DNA of 64,000 bases from Procambarus clarkii (taxonomy: Eukaryota > Arthropoda > Malacostraca > Decapoda > Cambaridae). The translations under genes were made by a program, and so were the position numbers. The stretch spans positions 36,049,759-36,113,758 of the forward strand of contig NC_091193.1 in assembly GCF_040958095.1 (NCBI RefSeq). Reading direction: 5' to 3'. Under the pieces are notes generated by a model that searched no databases, had not been told where the DNA came from, and saw only the letters and a list, made by a program, of their open reading frames with translations. This document shows, one piece after another, positions 4,911 through 59,280 of the stretch. Position 1 is the first letter of the stretch. Each line of letters begins with the position of its first letter.

Positions 4911-5071
4911 AATTATGGTATCGTGTATTCAATGCAAGAAATAATTATTTTGAATGCTGAAAAATCAACATTGAATGTCCTATTCAAAATAATGTGCGTT
5001 TCATTTCATTTCAATAAGATAAAATTAACATTGGACTTCAAAATAGGTATTTTTTTCTCACCCCATAAAAA
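4911..5071. promoter_or_regulatory. Intergenic CAACATTGAATG repeat region
   Basis: Between membrane copy A and the coiled-coil gene, ATCAACATTGAATGTCC, TATTCAAAATAATG and TTAACATTGGACTTCAAAAT occur close together. The same CATTCAA-TATTGAATG elements cluster upstream of membrane copy B (58850-59110). They are iterated, partly palindromic AT-rich elements next to both paralogues, possibly regulatory. Confidence 0.4.
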
Positions 5072-15038: not shown

Positions 15039-16915
15039 ATGAGCGAAGAAAAAAATCGTTTGGAGACTTTTAAGGACTGTAACTTCAGTGTAAACAGTCA
15101 TGTACTTGCAAAGGCGGGTTTCTATTATACTCATAAAGCAAATATTTTAGAATGTTCAATGTGCCATTTTCAAATTGATGCCACGAACGTAAACAAAGAT
15201 GAAAATAGAATTATTGCTTTACATAAGAAAGAGAAACCAGAATGCACATTTAATCAGAACGTGAAAAGATCTATTTCTAAGAAGTTTGATTCATATGACA
15301 GTTTACGGTTTGAAAAAGAACGTTTGGATACCTACATAGATTGGCCACTTGAATGGTTAGAACCATCTGATTTGGCTCGTGATGGCTTTTACTACCTTCG
15401 AACAAATGACCACGTTGCTTGTGTCTTTTGTCGAGGCATTCTTGGTGCCTGGGAAAGAGGAGACACTCCCAGAGGCGAACATCAGTATCACTTTCCCCAT
15501 TGTCCATTCATTCGAAACCAACCAGTGGGAAATTTTCCACTGATATTTAATGAAAAATTCGAGGGTTATTCCGTTCCACTGAGAAATAGTACAAATTCGT
15601 CCAATAGACAAGGAATAGATGTCTATGGTCTAAGTCCTATGACAGACAATGGAGTTCACCAGCATACCATTGCCAAGCGAAAAGACTACTTAACACTTGA
15701 AAGTCGCCTAGCAAGCTTTAACAATTGGCCTGAACGTGTAACACAGAAACCAACTGAATTGTCAGAAGCTGGATTCTTCTATTGTGGTTTAAGTGATCAT
15801 GTGCGCTGTTATCATTGTGGGAATGGACTTCGAAACTGGGAAACTGATGATATACCTTGGGATGAACATGCTCGCTGGTACCCAGAGTGTACCTTCCTCT
15901 TCTTGATGAAAGGAAAAGAATTCATTGATCAGGTATGTCAGCTACAGTAACTTGAAATGAAGGTTGACTATTATTATTGTAATCTTTATAAAAGCCATTT
16001 GTAACATTAACTTTATTTTTTTTTCAGGTTCAAGGGGAAAGGCCACCTTATGAGACAAACCCTTCAATAACCCATATCAATGAAGATCAACACAAACTTA
16101 TTAAGGAACTAGACATAACTAAGCACCTTATTTCAATGGGTTTCCAGGAAGATCATGTGATGACAACGTATCATAATCAACTCAAAGAGAAGGGGTTACC
16201 TTTCTTTGACATTGCGTCATTTATTGAAGCAGTCTTACAGTACATAGAAGACGAAGTTAGAAAACTTCTAGTAAATAAATTGGCATTGGCTGAAGTTTAT
16301 GTTGTCCCAAGCCCACCAATGTCTGATGGAAATGAGTTGGTTTCTGACACAAACCAACAAGTAGAATCATCTACAACTTTAATACAGCCTATAGTAGATG
16401 AATTAGCCTTGGCTGAAGTTGATATTGTCCCAAGCCAACCAATGTCTGATGGAAATGAGTTGGCTTCTGACCAAAACCATCAAGTAGAATCATCTACAAC
16501 TTTAATACAGCCTATAGTAGATGAATTGGCATTGGCTGAAGTTGATGTTGTCCCAAGCCAACCAATGTCTGATGGAACTGAGTTGGCTTCTTACCCCAAT
16601 CAGCAAGTAGAATCTACAATAGTTGATGAATTGACATTGACTGAAGTTGATGTCCCAAGCCCACCAATGTCTGGTGATTCTAACCCACAACCATTATTTG
16701 GTAGAATAACTGATCAAGTTGCCGCTCTCCCAAAATCAGAAGGTACAATTAGACACAGAGTGATTGAGTGTAAGATTTGTATGGAGAATGAGAGTGAGTT
16801 AATGTTTTTACCTTGTAATCACATATGCACTTGTTTCAAATGTGCATCAAACATATCCACATGTCCAATTTGCAGAGCTGAGATAAAATATACTATTAAA
16901 GCAATTATATCATAG
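15039..16915 (+). CDS. Inhibitor-of-apoptosis protein, 3 BIR + UBA + RING (spliced)
   Basis: Exon 1 (15039-15932) encodes three BIR domains. BIR1 is degenerate (C-x2-C then H and C, residues ~5-80). BIR2 (~87-165, CVFC...H...C) and BIR3 (~220-295, CYHCGNGLRNWE...H...C) are canonical. A GTATGT donor and TTTTTTTTCAG acceptor remove 15933-16027. Exon 2 gives a UBA-type region (ITKHLISMGFQEDHV...), a linker of four ~40-residue repeats, and a C-terminal RING (CKICMENE...CNHICTCFKCA...CPICRAE). The layout equals arthropod DIAP2-type E3 ligases, which bind caspases or act in IMD signalling. Large arthropod DNA viruses often carry IAPs. It is intact, apart from the divergent BIR1. Confidence 0.88.
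16270..16680 (+). repeat. Tandem coding repeats in the IAP-1 linker
   Basis: Four copies of a ~120-base unit (GATGAATTGGCATTGGCTGA..., coding LALAEVDVVPSQPMSDG) lie between the UBA and RING of IAP-1. Copies 2 and 3 are nearly identical, so the expansion is recent. Confidence 0.8.
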
Positions 16916-24084: not shown

Positions 24085-25412
24085 ATGCTGTGTATAGACA
24101 ATGATTTAAAATACGAGCAAGAGCGATTAGAAACATTTATTAATTGGCCTGTAAGTAACCCAAAGCCCAAAGAGTTGGTAACTAATGGCTTCTTCTATCT
24201 GAAAAAAGGAATAGAATGCGCTTGTGCATTTTGTTATGTCTATGTAAATTCTTGGGATGATATTTTAAATTATGACGATTATTTCAATGAAGATATAATA
24301 CTCATTTTAAATAACAACACTATTAAACTTAGTGAATTTCATAGGAGAATAAGCCCTGAATGTCCATTTTTGAAGGGCGAACCAGTAGGTAATATTCCTA
24401 TTGAATTTTCATCTTATCTCATAGAACCCAAGTATATTAAGTATAATAAAGATTTGGAATTTGAATTAGATCAAAAAAACAATTTACCCAAGGGGATACT
24501 CTTGCATAAAACTCCACATCATGAAAAATATAGTGAGGTTAGAGTTCGCTTGTCTAGTTTCAAAGACTTGTGGCCACTTTCAATAAAACATCCCAGCCCA
24601 AAAGAGTTAGCCCAAGCTGGTTTTTTTTATAAAAAACCACCTCGTGGAGATGAAGTAATCTGTTTCTATTGCAATATGCATTTTCGAAATTGGAAAGAAG
24701 GTCATGATCCATGGATAGAACATGGGCGTTGGTCAACACAATGTTATTATATATTGATCATGAAAGGGCCTGATTTTATTAAAAATATACGTTCATCTAC
24801 AATCACTAAAAATCCCCCAAAAATATTTTCTAATGATATAATTATGCAAATGATGAACAAATTAGATATTTTAGTAACTATATCTAAAAGTTACAAACGC
24901 GATATTGTTAAAAGAGTATTTAAAGAGGTAGTAATATACTCTGGACGATCATTTAAATCATATGATCAAGCTATAACTATTATAACAAGATATTTATATA
25001 TTAACCAAAGAAAATTTAAAAGGGTTAAAATCATAGAAGAAAATAATCAAAACGAAAAAGATGAAGTTGAAAATATATGTTTAACCTCAATGAATAATGA
25101 CACAGTAACATTAACCAGGACTAATAATGAGCCTAATACAACTACTTATTGTATATCTGATCCCAAATGTGATCAGATATTGAGCTTTACTATAAAGAAT
25201 TTAGGACATCAACAACCCACAGTTTTATCCGATTGTCAACATGATAAGAATTTAATGAATACACGCTGTAATATCTGCCAAGATAAAGAACGTTGTGTTC
25301 TCATTTTTCCTGCCAACATTTTTGTGTCTGTGAATTGTGTCTTTTACAACTTAGTAACTATCCAATATGTCGCAATTTAATTAGTCACGTAACTAAAGTA
25401 TATTTTTCTTAA
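24085..25412 (+). pseudogene. Inhibitor-of-apoptosis protein 2, RING frameshifted
   Basis: Two BIR-type domains are visible: residues ~8-105 (CAFC...H...C, with an acidic insertion) and ~150-230 (CFYCNMHFRNWKEG...H...C). A UBA-like helical region follows (~250-310), then a RING start (CNICQDKE). After about 25300 the frame is wrong. From TGC at 25311 the next frame gives CQHFCVCELC and YPICRN, the rest of a RING, ending at 25410-25412. One small indel near 25300-25310 therefore truncates the E3 domain. Unlike IAP-1 there is no intron and codon use is AT-rich, so this looks like the long-resident viral copy. Caspase or ligase function would be lost without the RING. Confidence 0.75.
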
Positions 25413-28065: not shown

Positions 28066-28440
28066 TGTCCTTGTGGCAAAGAGCCAGTTTTCATAGCTGA
28101 GGTGATTTCCAGTCACTGCAGTTATTTTTCCTTGTGGCAAAGAGCCAGTTTTTTATGGCTGAGGTGATTTCCAGTCACTGCAGTTATTTTTCCTTGTGGC
28201 AAAGAGCCAGTTTTTTTTATGGCTGAGGTGATTTCCAGTCACTGCAGTTATTTTTCCTTGTGGCAAAGAGCCAGTTTTTTTTTATGGCTGAGGTGATTTC
28301 CAGTCACTGCAGTTATTTTTCCTTGTGGCAAAGAGCCAGTTTTTTATGGCTGAGGTGATTTCCAGTCACTGCAGTTATAGAGAGCTAGTTTACTAGTGTC
28401 ACAACAATTATTTCCCTGTGGCAAAGAGTCAGTTTAATAA
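28066..28440. repeat. Tandem array of ~62-base units
   Basis: CCTTGTGGCAAAGAGCCAG, a T run of variable length, ATGGCTGAGGTGATTTCCAG and TCACTGCAGTTATTT are repeated five times, with a decayed sixth unit (28409-28435). The main difference between units is T-run length (4 to 9). It sits directly at the 3' end of the polymerase-subunit gene. Confidence 0.85.
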
Positions 28441-31400
28441 ATAATAAGGCTTAGGTGAATGTATATTATTAAACAAGCATATTTAACAATAACAATATTT
28501 TTTTTTTTTTTAATTTCTTCAATATTTACCATGGATGTACATTTGTATGCTAAGTTAATATTTGCTAACATTAAATCGTCATGATAACGTTGAAGGTATT
28601 TTGATCCACAGATAACTCCACTTTCATTTTCATTTTTTTCTGTTTCTGTTTCATTATTTTGAATAGTTTCCAATTCAATGTGTTTCATGTCTGAGCGTAT
28701 TTGAGTCAATTCTGTATGAATTCGAGCAGCTCCTATACTACGGAATGATACAAGTTCCATGGGCCCTGTGGAAAGACCACCACGTCGTCCTCGAACTGGT
28801 GCTCCGGTCAGTTCAGAAAATACAACTTCATCTGCTCGTGAAGTGTGCATCGTAGCATTTGCGCGGTGATTGGTAACACACATATAAGAACCTTCATATA
28901 AACTAGCTAAAACTGGCTCATTATCTCTATTTAAATATGGTTCACCCTTATAGGGATTCATAAGGATTCCAGTACAAGTTTTTCGACCCCACTGTAGATG
29001 TTCAATAACATTTTCAAAAGTGAGAGTAAAAGCTGCATCCATGTAATTCAAATTATTAAAGGTATTGCAATATAAATCTGGAGCTTGTCTTTTAAGTGAA
29101 TGAGGGTTAACTAAAACATCAATGGGTACATTTGATGAAAACATATCACCCTGACTCATTAATTTAATGTAAGGCATATCCTGTTCACTAACTAATCGCC
29201 CAATTACACCTTTTTGTGAAGTGGGTGTTTGTAACTTATCACCTAAAGATGGTATATATGGTGACACTGTTATCAGAGAAAAACGCCAACTTTGTAGTAC
29301 TGGTAAATCTACACTATCTATTTTAAAGTACCTAAATGTAATGTAATTAGGATGATGTTCTTTAAAAGCTAAAGAATATTGAGATTTCTTCAACCGTTGT
29401 TGCCGTTCAAGGGAAGGGTGGTGTGGATCATTTACTGTAACTCGGTAGTCATTTCGACTCCCTTTTCCATTCTTCGTCCCTGTGGATACTGGAACAGAAT
29501 CGTCATATATAGGCTCTTTTAAATCCCCAATTTTACCATTCCAAATAAGAGCAAGAGTATTGGCATCTATGTGAACGAATTCTATTTCTCCATTTGTAAA
29601 ATTAAGCAAACTATTATCTTCTTGAAACTTGGGATTAACCCCTTTTAAAATTCCCAACTGAACACCACGTTGAAGTGGGGTATGCTGATCAAAATAGGTC
29701 TGACAAAAAGTTGGTAGTGCATTCTGTCCTGATCCATAATTATATCGAACAATTGATGTTTCATAAGAAACACCTGAAAATAACCCACGGTCTATACTAT
29801 CTTGTTTTACTGTAATACTGTCTTCGGGATTGTGCCAGTTTACTACTGCCACCATAGGATTTTGACAAGGAATGGGTAAAAGTTTACTCATTCGAGATGT
29901 TGTGTATAATGTATGAATAACTGTCTTTTGATGAATTTCACCTACAGAATGAGTATTGACAGTAATACCAGCATAATGACGATACAATTGCAGACTGTTA
30001 CTAATTCGAGGGGGATGGGCAGCATTAGGACGGCTAATCGCTCGAGCATTTGGCCCCATAATATTAGGTATTTTTTCCCGGTCATAACCAATATAGAGTA
30101 ATTCAAAATCCTCTTTGAGATCACTATTTTCTTTTCTGAGAAAAATCTGAGGTTGCATTTGAGGTGGTAAATAAAAAAATGGATTAGCCTCCATTTGAAA
30201 AGTGTCTATTTCCTTAGACGTATAGAGTTGGCCATTGGGTAAAATTTTATAAGACATACGTGGCAGACTGGTGCATATCCACAGTTGATTTTTTTTGTAT
30301 TCTAATAATTCTATACAGGCGATATTTAATTTCAAAATATATTGAACAAATCGGTATAAATTGTCTACTCCAAATAAACAAACATATTCCCATTGAACTA
30401 GAGGCAAATGAGGAAAAAAATGTTGAGCTGCAGAACCATTCTTGATCGAATCTAATGGGAAATTAAACAGTTTATTTTGAATAATTATGTAGACATATAT
30501 AGATTCTAACTGATCAAGTTGTGAAGGATTTCCCACTTGTCTTAGTTGAGGGAGATATGTAAATAAGAATTTATCAGGTTGTGAATTACACATGCTGGTA
30601 GAGGCGATTATCACATCAGGTATCATTTCTAATATGATACCACATCGTTGAGGAGTATCAGGTGTATTGAGTAAATCAATGAAACCGACCTCACTTACCG
30701 TTATAGATTTAGGCTCTTTGGCTTTGGAATCTTTAGGCAATAATTTTTGTAATCCACATGCCACCAGACATATATTGGCATATGAATTAGATGAATAATT
30801 CCGACTAAACCGACCAATTTTATTCCATTCATTATTCCCGCTATTATTAAATGAATTACCACCATTATTTTCATTTAAAGTATTTATACTTGCAGAATTG
30901 CTTAATATTTTTGTTTGCGTAATACTCTCATCAATATGACCACACCGAATAGCAGTGGCTTTAACTTTCAAAGGATTAATTGCAATCATAGCTACTCGTG
31001 GTCCTGATAATTTTAATCTTATATCATTGTTCCCTTCATTCATATTATTATTATTATTATTATTATTATGATTGGATGTATAATTTTCCAAAATTTTAAT
31101 ATTATTTTTGTTAGCATCGCTCCTTTTTAATCGATAATATTCCATTAAAACTGTTAAATTTTCTTGAGAAAGTGAATGGTTAAGATCTTTCAAAATTTTA
31201 ACCACCTTGTTATGGAGTAGTGTAGCATTTACTTTGCGTATAGCTAGATTTAAAAAACAATTAATAAATATTTCACCAGTTGTAAAGATTGCCATATTTC
31301 CTAAATGATTAATATCCTGGTTTATATAGGAAGAGAGAAAAGGCCATTTTTTAATCTTAGATTCTTCATAAATAATAACTGCTTTTTCTTTTCTGCTAAA

Positions 31401-32009
31401 ATGAGGACGTCGACGATCTGGCCATATTATCGACTTGATGGAACATACAGATTCACTCACAATGAAATTGCCCGGATAAACGTCAAAGGGGAAGTTTTCA
31501 CATATAAGACATTTAAACGGGAAATGTGTATTTGGGGGGATTAGCCGATTACTTTGCCAGCACTTCCATTGTTCATAATCAATAGGTCCCTCAGGATCTT
31601 CTACCAACATTTGCCACATTTGGCCACTTTTCATTACAGGCACTGCAAAATTATACTTGGCATAATCTGCTAGTCGCTTGTCATTATCCCATTCAGGAAG
31701 TTGTAGTCCTACCCCTAGTACAAATTTGCGATCTAGATAATATTTTATAAATTGGGATTCATCACTTTTGGATTTTAGTAGATATGGTTGATTACTCAGA
31801 TGAAATGTTATGCCAGGGTAAATTTTAAATAACTTTTCAAAACTATCATTTTCGATTTGAAGCTTATTGTAGAGACTGTGTCTAAGAAATAATTCTAATT
31901 CAGCATCGGCTGAATCAATGATCGAACATTTAGGACAGGGTTTAAGGTTTCCACCAGGTAAAGCCCATTGTCGATGCCGATAATTTAAAATACCTCTTGT
32001 GTTAATCAT
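28434..32009 (-). CDS. DNA-directed RNA polymerase second-largest subunit (Rpb2/LEF-8 type)
   Basis: An intact 1191-codon frame close in length to cellular Rpb2. Landmarks in order: a CPKC metal-type motif near residue 25; Asn-rich inserts near 310-330 and 375-395 from AAT microsatellites; the NPEDS and DRGLF block (~720-740) equal to the Rpb2 GYNxEDS...DRGLF region next to the catalytic Mg site. Near ~920 comes GDKLQTPTSQKGVIG, with the two active-site lysines eight apart, then EDMP-like QDMPY and the NPHS segment. Near ~1070 lies RGRRGGLSTGPMEL, the C-terminal GGLRFGEME equivalent. It would pair with an Rpb1/LEF-9 type subunit, not present in this window. The last ~30 residues lie behind an A12 tract and may be a run-on. 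I am sure of the family, less of the virus lineage. Confidence 0.93.
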   Translation of the reverse strand: MINTRGILNYRHRQWALPGGNLKPCPKCSIIDSADAELELFLRHSLYNKLQIENDSFEKLFKIYPGITFHLSNQPYLLKSKSDESQFIKYYLDRKFVLGVGLQLPEWDNDKRLADYAKYNFAVPVMKSGQMWQMLVEDPEGPIDYEQWKCWQSNRLIPPNTHFPFKCLICENFPFDVYPGNFIVSESVCSIKSIIWPDRRRPHFSRKEKAVIIYEESKIKKWPFLSSYINQDINHLGNMAIFTTGEIFINCFLNLAIRKVNATLLHNKVVKILKDLNHSLSQENLTVLMEYYRLKRSDANKNNIKILENYTSNHNNNNNNNNMNEGNNDIRLKLSGPRVAMIAINPLKVKATAIRCGHIDESITQTKILSNSASINTLNENNGGNSFNNSGNNEWNKIGRFSRNYSSNSYANICLVACGLQKLLPKDSKAKEPKSITVSEVGFIDLLNTPDTPQRCGIILEMIPDVIIASTSMCNSQPDKFLFTYLPQLRQVGNPSQLDQLESIYVYIIIQNKLFNFPLDSIKNGSAAQHFFPHLPLVQWEYVCLFGVDNLYRFVQYILKLNIACIELLEYKKNQLWICTSLPRMSYKILPNGQLYTSKEIDTFQMEANPFFYLPPQMQPQIFLRKENSDLKEDFELLYIGYDREKIPNIMGPNARAISRPNAAHPPRISNSLQLYRHYAGITVNTHSVGEIHQKTVIHTLYTTSRMSKLLPIPCQNPMVAVVNWHNPEDSITVKQDSIDRGLFSGVSYETSIVRYNYGSGQNALPTFCQTYFDQHTPLQRGVQLGILKGVNPKFQEDNSLLNFTNGEIEFVHIDANTLALIWNGKIGDLKEPIYDDSVPVSTGTKNGKGSRNDYRVTVNDPHHPSLERQQRLKKSQYSLAFKEHHPNYITFRYFKIDSVDLPVLQSWRFSLITVSPYIPSLGDKLQTPTSQKGVIGRLVSEQDMPYIKLMSQGDMFSSNVPIDVLVNPHSLKRQAPDLYCNTFNNLNYMDAAFTLTFENVIEHLQWGRKTCTGILMNPYKGEPYLNRDNEPVLASLYEGSYMCVTNHRANATMHTSRADEVVFSELTGAPVRGRRGGLSTGPMELVSFRSIGAARIHTELTQIRSDMKHIELETIQNNETETEKNENESGVICGSKYLQRYHDDLMLANINLAYKCTSMVNIEEIKKKKNIVIVKYACLIIYIHLSLIIY

Positions 32010-34630: not shown

Positions 34631-36124
34631 ATGTAATTTATAATCGATGAAATATTAGCAAATGCTATTTTTGTAAATGGTAGAGAAATTCTACAAAATA
34701 ACATTTTAATGGCCTATGCAGCTCATAAATATTCGATGTTTAAAAACAATGGTAAATTGTATTCTGCTACGGAAATTATACATTCATGTATCAAGACTAA
34801 TCGTAACCTACCCCCTCATAAAATTTCTATTTCATTTGAGGCTATAATGACGGTAGGACAGAATACTGACCAAAATTTAATTTGTAAAAATACTCATTTT
34901 GTAGAAGAACGTGAATGTCGGCGTCATGTGGATATTGCACATCCACTTATTCAAGCTCATTTAGCTCCCTTGGGTGAACTATCCATGCAATATATTTCTA
35001 GGGTTTTAGAAATGCGGATTGGAGACTATCGCCTAATTATTGAACCACAACAGAATAGATATTTTATTCAATATAAGAAATTCCGTGACAAAAAAGTGGT
35101 TTTTCGTTTAGATTCCTTCACATTAGAATTTGTTTATATTAGTGATGAAGGGGAATCTTTTTACGATGCCCAGTATATACAACATAATAGTAGTGATGAT
35201 AGCAGTGGGGAAAGCATGTTAGTAGGTATGGCTAGCTTTCTTGATGGAAGTGATCTTTGTATAAAAACAACTTACCTCCTAGATTATTCAACCAAAACAA
35301 TTCTATATCATCGATACATTCCTAATGATCATACCCAAATATTCCCTTTCACTTTAGAAACAGAAGATTTACAACAAAGTGAGGCGGGACCTGCTTTAAC
35401 AATGAATACTGAGGGTGTACCTACAATATCACCGCCTTCGGGAACTTCAATTTACTGGTATACTTCTTGGAGATTAGAAGCTCAACTTCCTTTAAATCTT
35501 AGTATGTATCAACATGTTCATGAAGATAGTACTCCCCATCATCCAACTCCGTCTGAGAGTTTGAATCAATCTCCTGTTTATATATTCCCAAAGTTGGATG
35601 GTAATAATGGAATTTTACGTTTTTACCCAAGTCTTTTTGTTATTTCAAATCCTCTGATGTTATCGACATCACATCCACATTTAATACCCCAACATATTCT
35701 CCATTCTTTGATCGATTTCATTTTTACAGTAGAAACTGATCTATACTCTATAAACAACAATTCATCTTCCTTTATGGTACATAATTATCGACCAGTTGCC
35801 ATTATAGACATTGTCTCTACGGCTTTTAATGCTGCAGAAAGGATGAATATATTACAAGTATTACGAGCCCATTTTAGAAATGATTTAGCACCTTATTACA
35901 TCTTCTTTCAAGGGGAATCAAGCATATCCAAACCATCAATATCCCCATCATTACCATTTGAAAATTTTCATGACGGTGAGATATATGAGGTGTTGTTAAA
36001 TAACAACAGAAACATTATAAAGGTTTGCCGACATCGCCCAGATAAATCTCGAGCGAATCCACTTAAAACAGTTAATATTATATTGGGTATTCAAAAGTTA
36101 GAAGAAAGTTTTTTGGAAGTATAA
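34631..36124 (+). CDS. LEF-4-like mRNA capping enzyme (triphosphatase/guanylyltransferase)
   Basis: The protein is about 471 residues from the ATG at 34709, similar to baculovirus LEF-4. Guanylyltransferase motif I is seen as IFPKLDGNNG (about residue 293), with the lysine that would hold GMP. Further on are an IDIV segment, an HDGEIYEVL motif-IV-like block, an IIKV motif-V-like strand and RPDKSRANP, like the RxDKxxPN motif VI. The N-terminal half (ISFEAIM..., RLDSFTLEFVY) would be the metal-dependent triphosphatase. The reading frame is open upstream of 34709 back to TAA 34634-34636, which directly follows an ATG at 34631. The original start may be 34631, with codon 2 mutated to a stop. The function fits the nearby polymerase subunit. 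Confidence 0.62.
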
Positions 36125-41190: not shown

Positions 41191-44100
41191 TGCATATACA
41201 AGAATGTACATAAGGAATGTGAGGATACAAATATGGTAATTACAGTCTTGTAAAGCCACTAGCACGCGCAGCGTTTCGGGCAGGTCCTTAATCTAAGAAA
41301 ATTTTAAGGAGGTAAATACATGCAAAATTTATAGAAAAAAAAATGATAACAGATTACATGAAATGAAAAAAAAAAGAAGATGAGAGAAAATTGTAGGTAC
41401 AGTATATTAAAGCACATAGGTAGCTAAGATTGATTGCAATGACAGCTTAAAATGGTAGTTGACAACAAATTGGTAGGTACAATACAGCAGAAACAATATA
41501 AGATTGATTGCAATGACAGCTTGAATGGTAGTTGACAAAAATTGGTAGTCACAATACAGCATATGGCTAGCACATAAAAGAAGACAGCAATGAACACAAT
41601 GATAAGGTTGTTTGATATTACATAAAAATTAGGAGATTGGGTAACACTAGGTACAGAGCAAATTTAAAGCTCAGTGTAGGAAACTAAGAAGATGAAGTTA
41701 GGTACTTTTTGGTTTTGCTTTTAAATAAGGCAAAAGTTTTACAGTTTTTCAATTCACTAGGGAGTGAGTTCCATAGACTAGGTCCCTTAATTTGCATAGA
41801 GTGTTTACACAGATTAAGTTTGACCCTGGGGATATCAAAGAGATATTTATTTCTGGTGTGGTGATAATGGGTCCTATTACATCTGTCCAGGGAGAGTTTC
41901 AGAGCATGGTTTGCATTTAAGAACAGGGTTTTGCAAATGTAGTTGACACAAGAGAATGTGTGGAGGGAGTTAATATTTAGCAAGTTTAGGGATTTAAACA
42001 AGGGAGCTGAGTGTTGTCTGAAAGCAGAGTTAGTTATAATTCTGATAGCAGATTTTTGCTGTGTGATGATGGGCTTAAGGTGGTTTGCAGTGGTAGACCC
42101 CCATGCACAGATACCATAATTAAGATAGGGGTAGATTAGTGCATAATATAGTGAGAGGAGAGCAGAGTTAGGAACATAATATCTGATTTTGGAGAGTATA
42201 CCAACTCTCTTAGAGACTTTCTTAGTTATGTGTTGAATGTGGGTGCTGAAGTTGAGTCTCTTGTCTAGGAATAGGCCAAGAAACTTGCCATCATTTTTAT
42301 TACTGATGTTAATGTTGTCTATCTGTAGCTGAATTGCATTTGATGATTTGCTTCCAAATAAGATGTAGTAAGTCTTTTCGATGTTTAATGTTAGTTTGTT
42401 CGTTGACATCCATAAGTGGACTTTTTTTAATTCATTATTCACAACATTATTTAGTGTATGTGGGTTGAGGTTTGAGTAGATAAGGGTAGTATCGTCAGCA
42501 AACATTATAGGTTTGAGAATATTAGAGACATTAGGCAGATCGTTTATATATATAAGAAATAGAAGAGGTCCTAAGATGCTGCCCTGTGGCACTCCAACGG
42601 TAATTGGTAGAGTGGAAGAAGTTGTATCATTGATGGTTACATATTGGTGCCTGTCACTAAGATAGGATCGGATGTAGTCAAGGGCAAGGCCTCGGATTCC
42701 ATAATGCTGGAGTTTAAGTAAGAGGTAGTTGTGATTAACAGTATCAAAGGCTTTTCTTAGGTCAATGAAGAGTCCAATCGGAAACTCATTTTTGTCAAGG
42801 GCTGAGTAGATAATGTCAAAGAGACTAATGATTGCATCATTGGTGCTCTTTTGGGACCGGAAGCCAAACTGGCAGGGGCTGAGTATGTCGAATTTTACGA
42901 GGTAGGAATAGAGCTGTTTGTAAATAATTTTTTCAAATATTTTTGATAGAGTGGGTAGATTTGATATTGGTCTATAATTGTTTATGTCCGCCGGATTGCC
43001 TCCTTTATGGACTGGCGTTACTCTTGCTTTTTTGAGGATATCAGGGAAGGTGTGATACTCTATAGATTTGTTGAACAGTAGTGCTATGGGTGGGGCAAGG
43101 GCATGGGAGGCTCTCTTGTACACAATGGACGGAATTTCACTGGTGTTCCCTGCCTTGGTTTTTAGAGAATGTATGATGGACACAACATCTGCCGGGCTGA
43201 TTGGTGAAAGGAGAAGAGAGTTTGGATAGCTGCCTGAGAGATATGTGTCTGAGTCTGTGGGATTTTACTGGCAAGATTAGCACCAACCGATGAAAAGAAA
43301 CTATTAAATTCATTTGCCATTTCTAAATCAGTTGACGGTATATCCCCATCCTTGTAGAGTTTTATTTGGTTATGTGAGTGTTGTTTAGTTCCTAGGATAC
43401 TAGAGATAGTTTTCCAAGTGCTTTTCATGTTGCCTTTTGCTTCATTGAATCTATTCACATAATATGCAAGTTTTGCCTTTCTTATGATACTGGTAAGCAT
43501 TGATGAGTACCTTTTAGCTACTTCCTTTGAAACTAGGCCAATCCTAACTTTCTTTTCATATTCATGTTTCTTGTTGATTGAGTTGAGAATGCCACTTGTG
43601 AGCCATGGATTGTTTAATCTTTTATCAGTTACTTGCTTGGTAAGAAGGGGACAATGAAGGTTGTAGAGGCTTAGAGTTTTGGAGATGAAGAGGTTAGCTA
43701 ATGAATTTATATCATGGGTATTATTGAATTCAGAATCCCAGTTAATATTGTAAAGTGCCTCTGTAAGATTGTCTAAAGCTGATTCACTGTGTAGCCTAAA
43801 TGAAAGTTTCTTGCTTTTTGGTGGTGTTATGTCCATGTTCGCTATGAGAAAGGTAGGATAGTGGTCAGTTGTTCTGTCGTAGATTATACCAGATACAAGG
43901 GGAGCTGTTATGTTCGTCCATATGTGGTCCAAGGTAGTGGCTGATGTTTGAGTGACTCGGGTAGGTTTGGTGATTGTGGGGATTAGCATACAGGAGTTCA
44001 TGCTGTTAAGGAAATAGTCAACTTGAGAGCAATTTTGTTGACCCAGGTCAATATTAAAATCTCCTCCCAGAATGATGTGGTTTTTGTTGAGATTGTTGTT

Positions 44101-45417
44101 TATAATAAGATTCCTTAGGTTGTCTGAGAAAGAAGCTATGTTAGTATTGGGAAATCTATAGATGGCTCCAATAGTCAAAGAGGATTTAAGGGATTTAATT
44201 GTAAACTGAGCAAAAGTATATTCACAGTAGTCATCTCTGTCACTAATAACACTGTTGCAGATAAATGTATCTCGGTAATATATAGCTGTGCCACCACTTT
44301 TTTTATTAGGCCTACAGTTATGAATGGCTTTATAACCAGCTAAGTTGTAGAGTTGGGTATAGTCTTTATTTAGCCAAGTTTCTGTTAAAATAATGAACGA
44401 TAGGTTAGTACCTATTGCTGTGAGTAATGCATTTAAATCGTCAAAATGTTTACCAAGTGATCTAACATTTTGGTTATAAACTGATAGACAGGTGCTATTT
44501 TGAAGTTTGTTTTTAGCCTGGTGTGCTGTGAAATACTTGCAATAATGATGATCAATGTGCTGGTTGGTGTAGATATGAGACAGAAGATTTTGATCAGGAT
44601 CAATATCAGTGTGCATAGGGATGCAGAGGGATCACGATACAAGATACACGATAAAGCAAAACACAAGAATAAAAGCAAATACAATAAAATAGTAACAATT
44701 TAGAAGTAAAATAAAGATCCAATAGATAGCCAGGGAGGACACAGAAGTTACATAAAATAAAAAACAAAAAATCAGTAGAGACTGACAATATAAATGTAAA
44801 ATAAAAAATAATAAGAAAAATAATAATCATAAAAAAAATGATCTTTAAGATAATTAGCTTAGTAATGGTTAATTAACAGGATAATAAAAAGCCCTAGGTT
44901 TAGTGACAAGGGGATTAACTAAGAACAAATAATTAAGAGTATAAAACAGGCAAAGATGACAAACAAAAAAGAAATAAAAAGATAAAAATAAAAATAAACA
45001 CCTTTGGAAAGGAAAGGCAGAGCTTAAGTACACTTTGGTTGTATGTGAGACTACAAATTATGTTCTGGTTATTCAGCTGATATCCCACAGTCATCCAGGA
45101 AAGAAGTGAGGTGTGCTTCAGTGGTTATGACATAAGTTTTTCCAGAGTCAGTCTTCCTAGCTATTATTTTACCATCGCGCACAAAACAATGTTTAATAGC
45201 AGTGGATCTATTGCGAATTCCACGTAGTTTAAATAAGAGATTTTGTCTGAATCTGGTAAGACATTCGTTCACATAAACATTGGATTTCATAGCGACTGCA
45301 GTAGTGATAAGGTCTGACTTGCGGGAGCAGCTATCTAACTTCACCCTTATCTTTCTGTTGTTTGTACCAGATGATTTGGTACCCACTCTATAAGCTGACT
45401 TAATGTCTCTTGCTTCG
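41119..45417 (-). mobile_element. LINE (jockey/CR1-like superfamily) copy A, 5'-truncated
   Basis: Read on the minus strand. The partial ORF1 end (45386-45069, coiled-coil/RRM-type nucleic-acid chaperone C terminus) comes first. It is followed by the AP endonuclease frame 44616-43162 (NQNVRSLGKHFDDL, GGDFNIDL) and the reverse transcriptase frame 43183-41684 (GVPQGSILGPLLFLIY, FADDTT). Endonuclease and RT overlap in different frames at 43162-43183, so a frameshift separates what is one ORF in copy B. The 3' end has GCCCGAAACGC and an (AAAT)n tail at 41119-41190. The 5' truncation lies inside ORF1. The element sits within the dUTPase intron. Confidence 0.9.
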
Positions 45418-45505
45418 ATTGAATATGTGATTTATGACTTATTTATATTTAAATATATTTTAATTACCATATATATTTTAATTAACAATCTACCTTTTGC
45501 TTCAG

Positions 45506-45793
45506 TGCTGCCTACGATGTTACTGTGCCAGCACAAGGAAAAGGTGTAATCAAGATAGATATTCAAGTAAAAGTACCAGAAGGTTGTTATGAAGAATAGC
45601 TCCAAGATCTGGTCTTACTTTTTTTTTTTTTTTTTAATCACATTGATGTTAGGGGTGGTGTCATTGAAAGTGAAATGTTTCTGTGGTTCTCTTCAATTAT
45701 TCTAAAGTAGATTTTATTGTGAAAAAGAGAGATCGATTTTCACAACTAATTTGTGAACGAATATTTATTCCTAATTTGTTAGAGGAAGTTTAG
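45506..45793 (+). pseudogene. dUTPase-like gene, exon 2
   Basis: After a TTTTGCTTCAG acceptor (45495-45505) the frame joins exon 1 as a serine codon and reads VTVPAQGKGVIKIDIQ, a dUTPase beta region. A missing base near 45590 shifts the frame. RIAPRSGL (motif II) then appears in the next frame, a T20 run follows, NHIDVRGGVIE (motif III) lies at 45637-45670 and [15 protein letters not shown] (motif IV) at 45722-45768. The TAG at 45791-45793 comes before any Gly-rich motif V. At least two shifts and the lost C terminus make it dead. Confidence 0.75.
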
Positions 45794-46056
45794 GACATTG
45801 AGCATACCAAATGCCCCTGTGCCGCAAACCTTTTTTTTTTTTTGAATCAACAGAAATTAGTAGTAGTAGTAGTAATCAAACAACTAGCTAAATATACAGT
45901 GTGAATTAGTGATTCTCAACGATTACAGTGATAAGTGTGAGTAACTTATGTGGTGATGAAATGACTGAGGCGGTCTGCCTAAGGAGGCGGTTGTTATTTC
46001 CTAAAACATGCCTACTGAACTTCAATGAAAAGATGGTGTAGACTGTACGTTTAGCT

Positions 46057-48259
46057 ATGGAGTATCCAGATTTTAAACCAGTGTTCAAGGAGGGTCAGGG
46101 TCTTCATCAGCCATATATCACAGTTGGAACAGAAGAGGCCGTTAAACATTTAACTACAGATGGCTTTCAGAATATTGTGATGGTTGTTCCAGAAGAAGGT
46201 ATTTTCACAAAGGTCATACTTTTCAAATACCCAACTTACTTAGTTCCCGATCATCTCCTTTACAATGACAGTGTTGTTTGGGTAAAGAGAAACATTGTTC
46301 ATTATAAAAAACAAAGTCAGGTTATAGCTTTAATAAAAGGTGAGGCTCCTAAAAAAAATTTTGTACAAGGACTAGGCTATAGAAAAGTTTCAAAATACCA
46401 AGAGAAGCCAAAATTATGCCTGAAGTGTTATTATTGGGGGCATTTGGTTTGGAAATGTCAGTATGACCCCAGGTGTAAGTACTGTGGTAATAAACATGAC
46501 TCTAAAGAGTGTACAAAGAAAAAAAATTTCCATTTTGTTGTAATTGTAGAGGTAAGCATACTCCTTGGTCTTATCTATGCCCCATGAATCCTACAAATGC
46601 TGTTGCAGGGGGTGGTATTCTGCCAGCTAAGGGGAAACAAACTAGCTAGGCCCACACAACTGAAAGTCCTAAAGTCCTGTAGTATACAAATGTAACCTAA
46701 TTACTACTATTATATTGAATTTTTTGTAGTAACTTTACTAAACTAATCTATGCCTTTGAGATATATATGTATTTATGTAAGCATCTTTCCCATTCAAAAC
46801 AATATATAATTAACAAATTACAATGTTCGATAATTAAAGAAGGATAATTGGATTAATAAAAGAAAACAAATTAAAATAAATATTTTTTTTTAGGGATATA
46901 AAAGAGGATGTTCTCCTGTTCAATTCACTTGACACAGATGTCAGTAGCATATTATATACCTTGGGCAAAAGTTTATGTTGTGACCACCGGGCACACTGAT
47001 TACCTTTGTCAACATGAACAATTTGAGAAAGAATGAGTCAAATAAAAGAAGAAGGTGGTTATCACACAGACGAGATATGAAGCCAATCTTCATAGACAGG
47101 ATGAATGACTGGTTCAGGGAATACCAAATCCCAGAAGATATTGATACATTTGTTGATGACCTTAATCACCAAATTGAAAGTTGTCTTAGAATTCAGCGCC
47201 GTACGCCTCGGCGAAGACCCCCTCGGAAGAAAATGCCTCGAGGCAAAGATCCACAGAGTAAAGCTGAAGAATTAATTCACATGTGGAGTAAGGCAGCATC
47301 CTCCTCCTCCCTCTCAACGGAAATCGTCATGGAACAGCTCCTGCTACAGAATGACAGAAGAACTAGAATAGCGAGAGCACAGTCTAGTGAGGACGAATAT
47401 GGAGAACCTATCACAGCCCAGGAAGTAAGGGCGGCTGTTAAGAGAGGTAAAATTACAGCACCTGGTGAGGATGGCATTACCTACGACATACTTAATGCAC
47501 TGTGTGAAGTGTCTGGGAATCCACTACTCCTATTGTTTAACAAATCATTCCTAAATGGAGTTCTGCCCACACAATGGAAACACGCCAAAATTGTTCCCAT
47601 ACCAAAACCCAATGACCCTGGTAATTACAGATCTATCAGTCTCGTGTCATGTACTTGCAATTACCTGGTTAATGACACGGCTAGGTACTCTGTATTTGTT
47701 GACATAAAAGGAGCCTTCGACAAAGCCCAGGGAATTGCGATCCTGGACGAGCTTGCATGTATGGGTGTCAAGGGGAGACTCATGAAATGGATTGAAGACT
47801 ACCTCACAGGGAGGAAAGCTAAGGTCTACTTCAATGGAGCAATCTCAAGAACAATGAATATGGAACTCGGGACCCCCCAAGGAGGAGTCTTAAGCCCTAC
47901 ACTATTCAATGTACTTATGAATGCAATTGCCAATATTGATTTTCCTGAAGGAACACAACTAGTGGGATATGCAGATGATGTCCTAATACAAGCTCCCACC
48001 TTTGATAAAATAAAACAGGCCATTGAACTCCTTGGAAGGAAATGTATTGAGCTCGGTTTCACTCTCTCCACAAACAAGACAAAAGCATACTCCCATCGCA
48101 AGCGGAGAGAAAATGAAGAACTGCAAATTAATGGTGTAACACTTGAATGGGTTGACCACTATCGGTACCTTGGCGTCACCGTCGGCTCAAACAAGGGAAA
48201 GAAAGAGGAGCTCAATCAAATCATAGGAACATGCAAAAGTCGACTCAGGGAACTAAAAC
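46057..48259 (+). mobile_element. I-type LINE, 5' part
   Basis: 46057-46587 is a gag-like ORF1 fragment with two CCHC zinc knuckles (CLKCYYWGHLVWKC, CKYCGNKHDSKEC). 47014-48259 is reverse transcriptase (KGKITAPGEDGI, FVDIKGAFDKA, GTPQGGVLSP, VGYADDV). The endonuclease is missing. An internal deletion near 47665 removes most of the RT fingers region between SLVSC and the NDTARYSVF strand. It is inactive. The RT continues at 53408 beyond the inserted LINE copy B. Confidence 0.85.
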
Positions 48260-51200
48260 GGTCAACGAACGAACGTCAACAACACCTGTCGGCCCTGCCC
48301 TCCCTCCTCATTTATCAGCTGATCCTTGAGCTCTCGGCTACCAACAAATGATGTAGCATCACCCGAAGGCAGCTAAGTACACAGTGACCTAAATGTGATT
48401 GAAAAAACCAACAAGACCAACCCGTAATTCTCTCATTTCGACCTCATTAGTGTTGCTCCCTGGAGCTAAGAAGCTGTACCCGACGGTCACTGCTGCCTAT
48501 CAACGAGTCTTCCCTATTTGTTCCTGCCTACATTTATCCTGCAATCATGCAAAGTAAGGCCGGTAAGACCCTTAAGAAAGATAGCACACCTAACAAGAAT
48601 AACCCTAGTAGCCAGGCTAACAACATGATTAGTTCAGCTATCTCCCCCCTCGGTGGCCGCCGTGGGGGGTACCGACTCTCCCCCCGTCAACAATAACAAA
48701 CAATCTCAGCTGGGCGCAGCGCCGTCTCTGACACGGGCCATGCAACAATTAGGTAGCCATATGGACCAACTTAAACGAGCTACTGCCCCTTGTTCTGACT
48801 TCAAGCGCTTTGCTGATATCCCTTGGCTCAAGTTATTAACTCAAGTACATGAAGATCAAATGACAGTAATCAAAGAGCAGTCGGCCTTAATAATGAACCT
48901 GCAAGGCTCATTATTATCTTTGCAGAATGAAGTTGTAGACTTACACAAGAACAATCAAGATCTATCTACCAAAGTCGTCAACCTCGAACAAGAATTAAGC
49001 ATTCTCAAGAACACAGTTACAAACTTTAATCCAGATGCAACCACTAAAAAACAGGAAGAAATATTGCAACAGTTTGAGAACCATCTGAACAACCTACAAC
49101 AACAACACACTGTTACCCAAGACGAGACAGACCAACATAAACTACTTGAGTCTGTAATTATCTCTTCACGTGATTTTCCCCAAGAAACTGATGGTGAAGA
49201 CTGTGCTGCCATTGTGATCAAAGTATTGCAGGATAAGTTAAATTATTCGATCCAAAAAAATGACATCAAAGCAGCTTATAGAGTGGGTACCAAATCATCT
49301 GGTACTAATAATAGGCGAATTCGTTTAAAATTAGATAGCTGCTCCCGCAAGACTGATCTTATCTCATCTGCAGTTGCTAGTAAATCCACTGTTTATGTGA
49401 ATGAATGTCTGACCAGGTGCAGGCAAAATCTCTTTTTAAACTGCGTGGCTTCTGCAAAAATTCCCCTACAATTAAACACTGTTTTGTGCGAGATGGTAAA
49501 ATTATAGCTAGGAGGACTGACATTGGAAAAACCTATTCAATAACCACAGAAGCCCACCTTAATTCTTTCCTCAGTGACTGTGGGATAGCTGCTGTATAGC
49601 CTGAATTCAGATTATAATCTCATATAACTACCTTTGTGTACTCTAGCTCTGCCTTTCCCTTCAAAAGGTTTTAACTTTAGTTAAAAAAAAAAAAAAAAAA
49701 TAATGTTGTCATCTTTATTATTGCCTTTTTTTTCTTTTTACTCCCATGTTCCATAGTACACTGGCTTTGCCTGTGTCCTCTAGTATTAACTTCATTATCC
49801 AGTGTTCCTGAGTGTATCTCTATTTAAACTACCTCAGTTTGTTTTAGTGTAACTTTAGTATTCAACTATAGTGTACTTATAATAGCAAGCTTTTCATCTT
49901 ATAGATCTCATAATTGTTTTTTTTTTACTTTTTTGGTCATCTATTGTTATTAATTATTTTAGTTAATTTTTTACATTCCTAGTTCCCATTAAGTTTTTTT
50001 TTCTTTTTACTTAAAATTACCATTAAGTTTATTTTACTTTAGAATTTTTAATCTACTTTTTTCTTTGTTTTCTATTTTGTAATTTGCCATTCTTATCTTG
50101 TTTTCTTGCAATCAGCCTTTTTATGCAGACAAGTATAGACCCAGAACTAAACCTCTTATCCACTATCTATGACAATCATCACTTCAATGATCAAAATTGC
50201 AGATATTTTACAGCACATGATGTAAACAATGTATTAACAGATAATCTCAATATCTCTGTAATCAACTTGAACGTTAGATCCCTAGGTAAACACTTCGATG
50301 ATGTTAGTGCCTTGATTGAAACTATTGACAACAAATTCTCTTTTATTATACTTACTGAAACGTGGTTGAAAGAGGATAATACTCAACTCTTTAACATGCC
50401 TAACTACTCGGCAATTCACAACTGTCGTCAAATGCAGAGAGGTGGTGGTACTGCTCTTTACTACCACCAAGAACTAACATGCTTAAAGATAATAAGAACT
50501 AGAGACTGCTGTGGGGAGTATATCTTCGCCAGTTTCAGAGTCAAGGGTGCCGAGTCTGTCCAGTCTGTGGGTGCAGTCTATAGAATTCCTAACACTGATG
50601 TGTCTGAATTCAACTCAAACCTTAGAAATCTAATACTAGATAACAGATTGAACAAAAACCATCTAATTATCGCAGGGGACTTTAATATTGACCTCTGCGA
50701 GCCTGAACACCCTACTGCTGTTAGCTTCCTCAACTGTATGAATTCCTGCTTCCTCATACCCTTAATCACTAGACCAACTAGAATCACTGATAGTACTGCT
50801 ACGACTCTAGATCACATCTGGACCAACATAACCTCTCCGCTTACTTCAGGTATAATCACCGATAGCACTACAGACCATTACCCCACATTTCTCTTAACTA
50901 ACATTAGCAAACCACCTCTAGAGACAAGGGAGTTAAGCTTTAGGCTGCACAATGAAACTGCTATAAACAATTTTATAACTGCTGCTGATAATGTCAACTG
51001 GGAGTCCGAGTTAGGTAACATAGGGGACATCAACCTAACAGTGAAATCTTTTCTACAAACAACTCTTAGCCTTTATAACACCCACTGTCCTATGCTTACA
51101 AAACAAGTCACAAGCAAAAGACTTAACAATCCTTGGCTTACAAAGGGAATACTTAAATCCATTAACAAAAAACACGACCTTGAGAAGAAGTATAGGCTAG

Positions 51201-53407
51201 GAACAGTCTCCAAAGAATTCTCAAAGAATTACTCGTTATTGCTATCTAAAATAATTAGACGAGCCAAAACTAAATACTATGAAGATAAATTTACCCAAAT
51301 AAAGAGCAACATTAAACAAACTTGGAGCACAATTTCACAAATATTGGGATCAAAGAAGATTTTAAATAACAAACCAACACTCCTTTCCAATAACGTTGGT
51401 CAGCTTTCAGCCTCTGATTCTGCTATTGAGTTCAATAGGTTCTTCTCTTCCATTGGGTCATCCCTTGCAAATGATATTCCATCTTCCTGTACTGATGTTA
51501 ATGACTATCTTACAGGTAACTATCCACAGTCTCTGTACCTAAAGCCTACTAGTTCCACTGATGTCCATGAAATAATCCTTTCCCTTAAAACCAAGTCTAG
51601 TGCCCTCGAGGAGATACCAACTTTAATTTACAAAAAAGCCTCCAGATCTCTAGCCCCTGCTATTGCATTGCTCTTCAACAAGTCACTTGAACTCCAAACC
51701 TTTCCTGACATTCTAAAAAAAGCAAGAGTAACCCCTGTCTACAAATGTGGTGATCTCACTGATGTTAACAACTACAGACCTATATCAATCCTGCCTAACT
51801 TGTCAAAAATATTCGAAAAGCTAATCTACAAGCAGCTTTACTCTTTTCTAGCCAAAGACAATATACTTAGCTCTTGTCAATATGGCTTCAGACCCAAAAA
51901 AAGCACTAACGATGCACTTATTAGTATGATTAACTTAATTCACGCAGCTCTTGATAAAAAGGAGTTTCCTGTTGGGTTATTTGTGGACCTGCGTAAGGCT
52001 TTTGACACTGTCAACCACCAAAACCTTCTTCTTAAATTACATCATTATGGAGTCAGAGGACACTCCCTGCAATACCTCAAATCTTATCTTACTGACAGGC
52101 TCCAGTATGTTTCTGTGAATAATACAATTTCTCCCACCCTACCCATCAACATTGGTGTTCCTCAGGGCAGCATACTTGGCCCTCTCCTCTTTCTCATCTA
52201 CATTAATGACCTTCCAAATGCCTCCCAACACCTCAAACCAATTCTATTTGCTGACGACACAACCTTCATTTACTCCAGTCCTGACCCCCTTGCTCTAAAT
52301 GCCACAGTAAATACTGAGCTAGAGAAAGTCCATCTTTGGCTAACTGCCAACAAACTCACCCTTAACATTGACAAAACGTTTTATATTCTGTTTGGCAATA
52401 AATCCTCTAATCAGATAAATCTCAAAATAAACAATACCCAAATTTGTAACAAATTAGATGGCAAATTCCTTGGCGTTCTCATCGACCACAAGCTGAATTT
52501 CCAGGGTCACATTCTAAATATATCAAAAAAAGTTTCAAAAACTGTTGGCATTCTTTCTAAGATCAGATATTATGTACCCCGCCCTGCCCTGGTTACTCTC
52601 TATTACTCCCTCATCTATCCATACCTCAACTATGGTATTTGTGCTTGGGGTTCTACTACCCAAAATCATTTACGTCCTCTTATTACCCAACACAAAGCTG
52701 CTATTAGGACAATATCCAACTCTGGCCCCAAACATCACTCGGTACCCTTACTCAAATCTCTGAATATGTTAGATATTAAGTCACTGCACATTCTCTCTTG
52801 TGTATTATACATATATAAAACGCTGAACTGTAATACCAATCCTGACCTCAAAAGCTTCATTGAAGGTTGTAACAGAACCCATGAGCACCACACCAGGAAT
52901 AAATACAGTTTTGATATTCCTAGAGTACGACTTAATCAAACTAGAAATGCTCTACAAATCAAGGGACCCAGAATGTGGAATGACCTTCCCAACCATGTTA
53001 AAGACTGTACCTCTCTCAACCAGTTTAAGATAAAAACTAAACACTACCTAATAAATTCCCTGTAACCCACCTCACTCCTTTATTGTCAACCCATGTCTGT
53101 TATTTTATTATTATTATTTTTTTTTAATCAACACTGTCAACCTATTGTATTTGTGCTGCATTTTCAGTCATGTTCCCCCTTTTTTTATCTTTATTTGTAT
53201 TTGTTTTCAACACTTTTTATTCTTTATGCTCAATTAGTATTAAGTTCTAGTTATTAATGTTTTTCTTGCCCGAAACGCATTGCGTAATAGTGGCTTTAGG
53301 CATTGTATGTCCTAGCTCTATCTATATATCAATCCATTAATGTAACATCACTTGTATGTATGTACCTTACCTGAATAAACATATTTATTTATTTATTTAT
53401 TTAAAAC
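48260..53407 (+). mobile_element. LINE (jockey/CR1-like) copy B, nearly full length, nested
   Basis: It starts after TAAAAC (48254-48259) and ends in an (ATTT)n tail followed by TAAAAC (53402-53407), a 6-base target duplication. ORF1 runs from about the ATG at 48547 to 49599, with coiled coil. It has two homopolymer frameshifts (C7 near 48645 and a T run near 49433). ORF2 is intact, ATG 50123 to 53065, with an AP endonuclease (AGDFNIDL, DHIWTNI) and a reverse transcriptase (GVPQGSILGPLLFLIY, FADDTT). The 3' flank has GCCCGAAACGC...TAGTGGCTTTA, shared with copy A. Confidence 0.92.
50123..53065 (+). CDS. LINE ORF2: endonuclease-reverse transcriptase, intact
   Basis: About 980 residues. The N-terminal exonuclease-endonuclease-phosphatase domain (LNVRSLGKHFDD, TETWL, GGTALYY, AGDFNIDL) nicks target DNA. 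The RT domain (KARVTPVYK, NYRPISILP, LFVDLRKAFDTV, PQGS, FADDT) copies RNA by target-primed reverse transcription. Copy A is only moderately similar, so the two represent related but separate lineages. No stop or shift is seen, so the insertion is comparatively young. Confidence 0.93.
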   Translation: MQTSIDPELNLLSTIYDNHHFNDQNCRYFTAHDVNNVLTDNLNISVINLNVRSLGKHFDDVSALIETIDNKFSFIILTETWLKEDNTQLFNMPNYSAIHNCRQMQRGGGTALYYHQELTCLKIIRTRDCCGEYIFASFRVKGAESVQSVGAVYRIPNTDVSEFNSNLRNLILDNRLNKNHLIIAGDFNIDLCEPEHPTAVSFLNCMNSCFLIPLITRPTRITDSTATTLDHIWTNITSPLTSGIITDSTTDHYPTFLLTNISKPPLETRELSFRLHNETAINNFITAADNVNWESELGNIGDINLTVKSFLQTTLSLYNTHCPMLTKQVTSKRLNNPWLTKGILKSINKKHDLEKKYRLGTVSKEFSKNYSLLLSKIIRRAKTKYYEDKFTQIKSNIKQTWSTISQILGSKKILNNKPTLLSNNVGQLSASDSAIEFNRFFSSIGSSLANDIPSSCTDVNDYLTGNYPQSLYLKPTSSTDVHEIILSLKTKSSALEEIPTLIYKKASRSLAPAIALLFNKSLELQTFPDILKKARVTPVYKCGDLTDVNNYRPISILPNLSKIFEKLIYKQLYSFLAKDNILSSCQYGFRPKKSTNDALISMINLIHAALDKKEFPVGLFVDLRKAFDTVNHQNLLLKLHHYGVRGHSLQYLKSYLTDRLQYVSVNNTISPTLPINIGVPQGSILGPLLFLIYINDLPNASQHLKPILFADDTTFIYSSPDPLALNATVNTELEKVHLWLTANKLTLNIDKTFYILFGNKSSNQINLKINNTQICNKLDGKFLGVLIDHKLNFQGHILNISKKVSKTVGILSKIRYYVPRPALVTLYYSLIYPYLNYGICAWGSTTQNHLRPLITQHKAAIRTISNSGPKHHSVPLLKSLNMLDIKSLHILSCVLYIYKTLNCNTNPDLKSFIEGCNRTHEHHTRNKYSFDIPRVRLNQTRNALQIKGPRMWNDLPNHVKDCTSLNQFKIKTKHYLINSL

Positions 53408-56352: not shown

Positions 56353-56774
56353 AGTCAAATAATTCTTAAGGATGACTATCATTTTTACGTTTTTCATCAA
56401 GTCCCTGTTAATATGGGAGAACACTATGTCTATGCTTGATTCACAACTCTCCTAAACACGAGAGTGAAGTTATACAACTTTAGAACGCTTTCCCACCAGG
56501 AGACTTGAACCCTAGCCAGCACAGAAGCCTGGTGGGAACCTTTAATTTTATATTCAATTGATAATTTTATATACTTTTTTGACGTTTTATATACCAGAGT
56601 ATATAAAATCTCCGGGCCTTTTATATATCAGAGTAAATAAAATTAAAATGACCCTATAAATAGATAGAATTTGGTTTTTTATCTTATAAGGTGACCAGCG
56701 TCTGGGTCAAGATAAATACGTTTTCTTCCTTTAAACTGAATCCAGTTTTTATCTTTTCGGTGGGGGGTTCTATG

Positions 56775-59115: not shown

Positions 59116-59280
59116 ACAACAGTCACAAACACCCTGATGGATAGTTGAAAAAAAAGAGATTTGAGTCCCTGATTAAAAAAAAAAAGACTACTACTACTAC
59201 AACCCTACTTAAATTACTTACTGTTTTGCTTACTGAACACTGTAATACAACAGGTGTTGATGCAAACTCTAATCCAAAAA

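What the first reader, a model, noticed from the sequence alone, without database searches (positions are those of the whole stretch)
28434..32009. Intact viral-type RNA polymerase second subunit in an endogenous locus
The protein shows the hallmark blocks NPEDS/DRGLF, two active-site lysines eight residues apart in GDKLQTPTSQKGV, QDMPY, NPHS and RGRRGGLSTGPMEL in Rpb2 order. To my knowledge nimaviruses have no recognised RNA polymerase, yet the surrounding genes look nimavirus-like. This is either a decapod virus lineage with its own transcription machinery or a link between nimaviruses and the lef-gene viruses. An unbroken 1191-codon frame among so many broken genes also hints at recent integration or retained function.
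Basis: partly seen in the sequence, partly recalled or inferred. Interest (0 to 1): 0.92.

Follow-up and report, generated by a model that had tools for sequence, protein, structure and literature searches.

The report
Crayfish endogenous virus RNA polymerase gene
The crayfish genome holds dozens of recent copies of a large DNA virus that carries its own RNA polymerase subunit and, next to it, a likely RNA-capping enzyme, a transcription kit not described for the nimaviruses known from crustacean genomes.

Summary
ORF 28434-32009(-), 1191 aa, is a divergent Rpb2-type RNA polymerase subunit (PF00562 E 5.5e-13; profile-profile probability 99.3% against canonical Rpb2), in a clade apart from nine canonical Rpb2 proteins. 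A gene 2.7 kb away, 34709-36124(+), has capping-enzyme motifs in LEF-4-like order. Poor structure models rank nudivirus RNA polymerase first and an entomopoxvirus second, and nudivirus LEF-4 first: leads, not proof. The host is Procambarus clarkii (contig lengths). At least 57 matches lie there, 19 with frames of 1179 codons or more; 50 of 57 have a capping match within 25 kb. Changes private to one copy look neutral, shared ones look constrained (small numbers), so the unbroken frame reflects youth, not host use. Nimavirus surroundings were not confirmed. Best reading: a young, multi-copy endogenous large DNA virus with its own, probably lefavirus-type, transcription genes. PIF and LEF-9 tests stayed open.

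The parts
28434..32009 (-). Rpb2/LEF-8-type second-largest RNA polymerase subunit, 1191 aa, single open frame
34637..36124 (+). LEF-4-like capping enzyme: inferred N-terminal RNA triphosphatase motifs and C-terminal guanylyltransferase-type domain (KLDG; RPDKSRAN). In this copy the frame is broken within the first codons; the ATG-started frame used for searches is 34709-36124
15039..15950 (+). three-BIR protein (IAP-like)
   Evidence: PF00653 E 1e-52, 3 stretches
16136..16915 (+). RING-finger frame following the BIR frame
   Evidence: PF13920 E 3.3e-14
24085..25380 (+). second BIR protein (2 stretches), similar (30% over 241 aa) to 15039-15950
4035..4907 (+). frame paralogous (62% over 220 aa) to 56682-58121(-); function unknown
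56679..58019 (-). Gly-rich repeat protein, paralog of 4035-4907
41684..53065 (.). non-LTR retrotransposons (endonuclease and reverse transcriptase frames on both strands) lying within the locus
59260..61203 (+). F-box protein frame (to 60609), followed after one stop by a same-frame open piece to 61203; a broken gene is possible, not shown

Best explanation
The ORF encodes the second-largest, catalytic-lysine-bearing subunit of a DNA-dependent RNA polymerase that belonged to a large DNA virus of crayfish. The virus also carried a capping enzyme built like LEF-4 (triphosphatase plus guanylyltransferase), so it most likely transcribed and capped its own, probably late, mRNAs in the nucleus, as lefaviruses do. 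The virus is a very divergent relative of the lef-gene viruses (Naldaviricetes/Lefavirales). It has multiplied recently in the Procambarus clarkii genome, where copies decay neutrally after insertion. Shown: Rpb2 homology, conserved catalytic blocks, linkage to a gene with nucleotidyltransferase/capping motifs, multi-copy presence. Inferred: triphosphatase and guanylyltransferase activity, a LEF-9 partner, nuclear late transcription, membership among naldaviruses.
Confidence: 0.6

Rival explanations
1. A nimavirus, or a sister of Nimaviridae, that kept or regained an RNA polymerase and capping enzyme: a link between nimaviruses and the lef-gene viruses.
For: Multi-copy endogenous behaviour, decapod host and BIR/RING genes resemble majaniviruses as described in PMC10871703 (passages and sections 5 and 15) and PMC7016691 (passages, section 13, gene table). 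[quoted passage not shown]
Against: No nimavirus core gene was recognised in the window, though no nimavirus reference sequences were at hand. No telomere-type (TAACC)3 run lies in the window, which need not hold an end of the element. No nimavirus is named in the 50 rows shown of either viral structure search, some of which carry no name.
Confidence: 0.2
2. A Nucleocytoviricota-type virus (for example poxvirus-like, iridovirus-like or Mininucleoviridae-like) with a fast-evolving Rpb2 and a capping enzyme.
For: In the viral structure search an entomopoxvirus polymerase ranks second over 1262 columns, and sheeppox, vaccinia and pithovirus rows have probabilities of 0.98-1.00. The vaccinia capping enzyme is among the capping matches. 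Mininucleoviridae infect crustaceans and have highly divergent RNAP subunits (PMC6960288 passages).
Against: Mininucleoviridae lack a capping enzyme. LEF-4 heads the viral list for the capping protein, a giant-virus capping enzyme is eighth. The six canonical Rpb2 proteins carry PF04561, PF04563 and PF04566, which this family did not show even at E <= 10. Column counts are weak evidence either way: unrelated rows also reach over 1000 columns.
Confidence: 0.18
3. A host-derived Rpb2 paralog or pseudogene carried by retrotransposition.
For: The locus contains LINEs and an intronless S-adenosylmethionine synthetase frame.
Against: Far stronger PF00562 matches, taken as the host's Rpb2 genes, lie elsewhere (best E 1.3e-103). 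No cellular class stands out in the profile search. The family has its own clade and relatives on contigs from other samples.
Confidence: 0.02
4. Some unbroken copies have been taken into use by the crayfish (domestication); this could be true beside the best explanation.
For: 19 of 57 rows keep frames of 1179 codons or more.
Against: Private changes in the 17 copies without stops have a ratio of 1.06, and several copies are identical to each other over 1160 codons, so they look simply young.
Confidence: 0.04

Closest known systems
LEF-8 and LEF-4 of Lefavirales (Nudiviridae, Baculoviridae)
   Same: Second-largest RNAP subunit plus a triphosphatase/guanylyltransferase-type protein of similar length (471 aa here, 451 aa in Homarus gammarus nudivirus); first viral structural matches are nudivirus RNAP and nudivirus LEF-4
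   Different: No LEF-8 or LEF-4 Pfam match listed; active-site segment reads TPTSQKG (TPTSMKG in P0015) where canonical Rpb2 has SSRHGQKG or similar; LEF-9 and PIF genes not found or not testable here
Endogenous nimaviruses (majaniviruses, pemoniviruses, clopoviruses; PMC10871703, PMC7016691)
   Same: Multi-copy endogenous large DNA virus of crustaceans; BIR genes (majaniviruses)
   Different: Lefavirus RNAP genes are stated to be absent from nimavirids (PMC10271883); no RNA polymerase is mentioned in the main text of PMC10871703 or in the 117-gene table of PMC7016691
Mininucleoviridae (PMC6960288)
   Same: Crustacean hosts, highly divergent virus-encoded Rpb2
   Different: They lack a capping enzyme; here a capping-type gene accompanies 50 of 57 polymerase rows
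Canonical Rpb2 (archaeal, Pol I/II/III, poxviral)
   Same: Fork, hybrid-binding and anchor blocks, two lysines eight residues apart
   Different: Recognisable homology starts at about residue 426; the usual protrusion and lobe Pfam domains are not recognised and the clamp domain only below its cut-off

Membership tests
Multi-subunit RNA polymerase second subunit (Rpb2/beta) | Rpb2 domain 6 profile and both active-site lysines | tested here: met
   PF00562 49.2 bits against cut-off 23.4; K925 and K933
Multi-subunit RNA polymerase second subunit (Rpb2/beta) | Collinear homology beyond the active site | tested here: met
   hhalign probability 99.3, 564 columns, residues 426-1105
Lefavirales | lef-8 homolog | tested here: inconclusive
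   Rpb2-type subunit present; nudivirus RNAP first, entomopoxvirus second, with a poor model; no LEF-8 Pfam match listed for 9 members
Lefavirales | lef-4 homolog | tested here: inconclusive
   Motif order 12 of 12, nucleotidyltransferase rows, LEF-4 first in BFVD at E 0.005; no LEF-4 Pfam match listed
Lefavirales | lef-9 (largest subunit) homolog | tested here: inconclusive
   Nothing recognised in this 64-kb window; the genome-wide PF00623 request did not complete
Naldaviricetes | pif genes | tested here: inconclusive
   None recognised in the window; PIF2 profile gave 0 matches in the genome, with no ringing control; PF04583 (p74) and PF05092 requests not answered
Nimaviridae | nimavirus core genes (wsv-type) | tested here: inconclusive
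   None recognised by Pfam in the window; no nimavirus reference sequences available
Nimaviridae | RNAP (lef) genes absent, as stated for known members (a diagnostic remark in the literature rather than a formal criterion) | tested here: not met
   PMC10271883 against an Rpb2-type gene here
Mininucleoviridae | Transcription set without capping enzyme | tested here: not met
   PMC6960288 against a linked capping-type gene
Host Pol I/II/III Rpb2 | Position inside a cellular Rpb2 clade | tested here: not met
   Own clade against 9 canonical Rpb2 proteins (unnamed database proteins, not labelled Pol I/II/III, midpoint root); no PDB class stands out; far stronger matches elsewhere in the genome

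The most novel reading that the evidence does not exclude
An undescribed family-level lineage of crustacean large DNA viruses, between Nimaviridae and Lefavirales, with its own divergent RNA polymerase and LEF-4-type capping enzyme. It behaves like a giant, recently active mobile element in the crayfish genome and has relatives in other samples (31-36% identity in public contigs), which would move virus-encoded transcription back to the common ancestor of naldaviruses.
Probability: 0.35. Interest if true: 0.88.

Novelty: new variant of a known kind. Interest (0 to 1): 0.72.

Why it matters
Presence or absence of RNA polymerase genes is the character used to separate Lefavirales from nimavirids (PMC10271883). 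A crustacean endogenous virus with an Rpb2-type subunit and a LEF-4-like capping gene, in dozens of near-identical copies, makes it testable whether nimaviruses lost this machinery or never had it. It also shows that P. clarkii carries many young copies of a large DNA virus whose polymerase gene is at present filed as 'uncharacterized protein'.

Tried and rejected
IMG/VR scans with the protein, with alignments A1 and A4, and with a degenerate DNA signature gave no relative; the signature also gave none in GTDB contigs. Phage records gave four weak matches over 16% of the query. The profile search did not relist 5 of the 8 strong relatives found, so it is insensitive and its silence about nimaviruses is weak. 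The AlphaFold model of the polymerase is too poor to interpret residue by residue. Retained host function was considered and rejected. Rfam and tRNA scans were empty. PHROGs gave one weak match for the polymerase and one for 2467-3534, both to families of unknown function. Literature: ten searches, judged from their listings, showed no report of an RNA polymerase in an endogenous crayfish virus; subscription papers and preprints are mostly not held, and Kawato 2019 was not held. Passages of PMC12198294 had nothing to the point.

Choices behind the counts. The 57 polymerase rows (of 110) were picked by me: partial matches around profile positions 198-263, no stops, E 1.0e-4 to 6.4e-4. I fetched 40 of the 56 other than the window. 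All 40 align to the window ORF at 93.6-99.6% identity, the lowest values partly from misaligned ends; the other 16 were not checked. 9 of 41 (coverage under 0.98 or more than 4 frameshifts) were dropped before the substitution counts. The ordered capping pattern was written after seeing the alignment, so its shuffle control (0 of 20,000) is not independent.

Full report
Observation. The named motifs are there and in Rpb2 order. Pfam PF00562 matches at E 5.5e-13, above its cut-off. Single-sequence PDB matches are archaeal, Pol II, Pol III, Pol IV/V and bacterial subunits. With a family profile they include archaeal Rpo2 (6.2e-17), vaccinia rpo132 (1e-15), Pol II (2.6e-15), Pol III (3.3e-14), Pol I (5.2e-9) and ASFV (9e-7). 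No class stands out.

Family. One search listed 14 proteins at E <= 10: eight strong relatives (P0001-P0008) and six weak canonical Rpb2 proteins. One search added P0015 and P0016, and three more canonical proteins. P0001 and P0016 are Procambarus clarkii 'uncharacterized protein' entries; P0002-P0008 and P0015 are on ENA contigs of 4-15 kb at 31-36% identity. The alignments keep the fork, hybrid-binding and anchor blocks. Profile-profile comparison with seven canonical Rpb2 proteins gives probability 99.3% and E 9.9e-21 over residues 426-1105. A tree of 11 family rows and 9 canonical rows separates them with 100/100 support. No LEF-8 and no labelled host polymerases were in that tree.

Genome. 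The window lies in a 4.03-Gb assembly. Contigs of 36,267 and 50,858,517 bases match those reported for the P. clarkii proteins P0001 and P0016, so the host is P. clarkii. The PF00562 search listed 110 rows; 57 of them, on 42 contigs, are copies of this gene by my selection, and 19 have frames of 1179 codons or more. Much stronger PF00562 matches, taken as the host's own genes, lie elsewhere. The capping protein gives 93 rows, a lower bound. Of the 57 polymerase rows, 50 have a capping row within 25 kb: 41 on the opposite strand as here, 9 on the same strand; 7 have none.

Age and selection. Forty copies and the window were compared; 32 of 41 aligned well. Among 17 copies (window included) without stops and with at most one frameshift, the median pair differs at 6.5 sites over 1160 codons, and some are identical. 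Changes private to one copy: 7 synonymous and 28 non-synonymous in those 17 (1.06 relative to neutral); 33.5 and 104.5 plus 14 stops in the other 15 (0.83). Changes shared by two or more copies: 12 and 19 (0.42). Pairwise mean dN/dS is 0.56, 0.60 and 0.55 for unbroken, broken and all copies. This fits a gene that was constrained while the element multiplied and drifts after insertion; the counts are small and no significance test was run. Locally, 5 inferred breaks in 21,759 bp predict 0.8 breaks in a frame of this length, so the unbroken frame is ordinary.

Surroundings. Two BIR proteins and a RING frame, paralogous gene pairs, LINEs and an intronless S-adenosylmethionine synthetase frame. 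The third-position G+C of polymerase (0.227) and capping gene (0.235) lies within the range of other virus-like frames (0.15-0.32) and below the reverse-transcriptase frames (0.36-0.43) and the synthetase (0.50). No PIF, DNA polymerase or largest RNAP subunit was recognised in the window; a DNA polymerase exonuclease match of frame 12-638 (E 0.036) is below its cut-off and was not counted.

Literature. [quoted passage not shown] PMC10871703 (passages, outline, sections 5 and 15) has no mention of RNA polymerase, Procambarus or crayfish in its main text. PMC7016691 (abstract, passages, section 13, gene table) lists no RNA polymerase. PMC6960288 (passages) states that Mininucleoviridae lack the capping enzyme. 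PMC12548425 (passages and section 8) shows that lef genes of remote naldaviruses have been missed before.

Verdict. Confirmed virus-type RNA polymerase subunit; good evidence for a linked capping enzyme; strong evidence for a young, multi-copy endogenous element in P. clarkii; limited evidence for lefavirus kinship; no evidence yet for nimavirus identity.

Noticed in passing
G000:C21:3624748-3637994: Five capping-gene copies on one strand spaced 2957-2960 bases apart: a local tandem amplification of the capping gene.
   Followed up: no
G000:C11:5.4-12.0 Mb: Eighteen strong Rpb2-like partial matches (profile from position 168-177) on one contig, each with at least one TAA inside: an amplified Rpb2-like array or pseudogene family, separate from the viral genes.
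   Followed up: no
P0021: A protein filed under the microsporidian Astathelohania contejeani is 64% identical to the crayfish-borne capping gene; probably crayfish DNA, or a virus in it, in that assembly.
   Followed up: partly
window 55186-56352: Intronless S-adenosylmethionine synthetase frame with all three domains and third-position G+C of 0.50, next to LINEs; looks like a host retrocopy rather than a viral gene.
   Followed up: partly
window 5069-7944 and 18398-21224: Duplicated pair of coiled-coil-like genes (48-56% identity over the matched parts), the second set interrupted by a stop.
   Followed up: no
window 28068-28378: Five copies of a 62-bp tandem repeat just behind the polymerase stop.
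   Followed up: no
window 63120-63995: 291-aa frame near the window's end, no family match above noise; the sequence looks Rossmann/methyltransferase-like by eye only.
   Followed up: no
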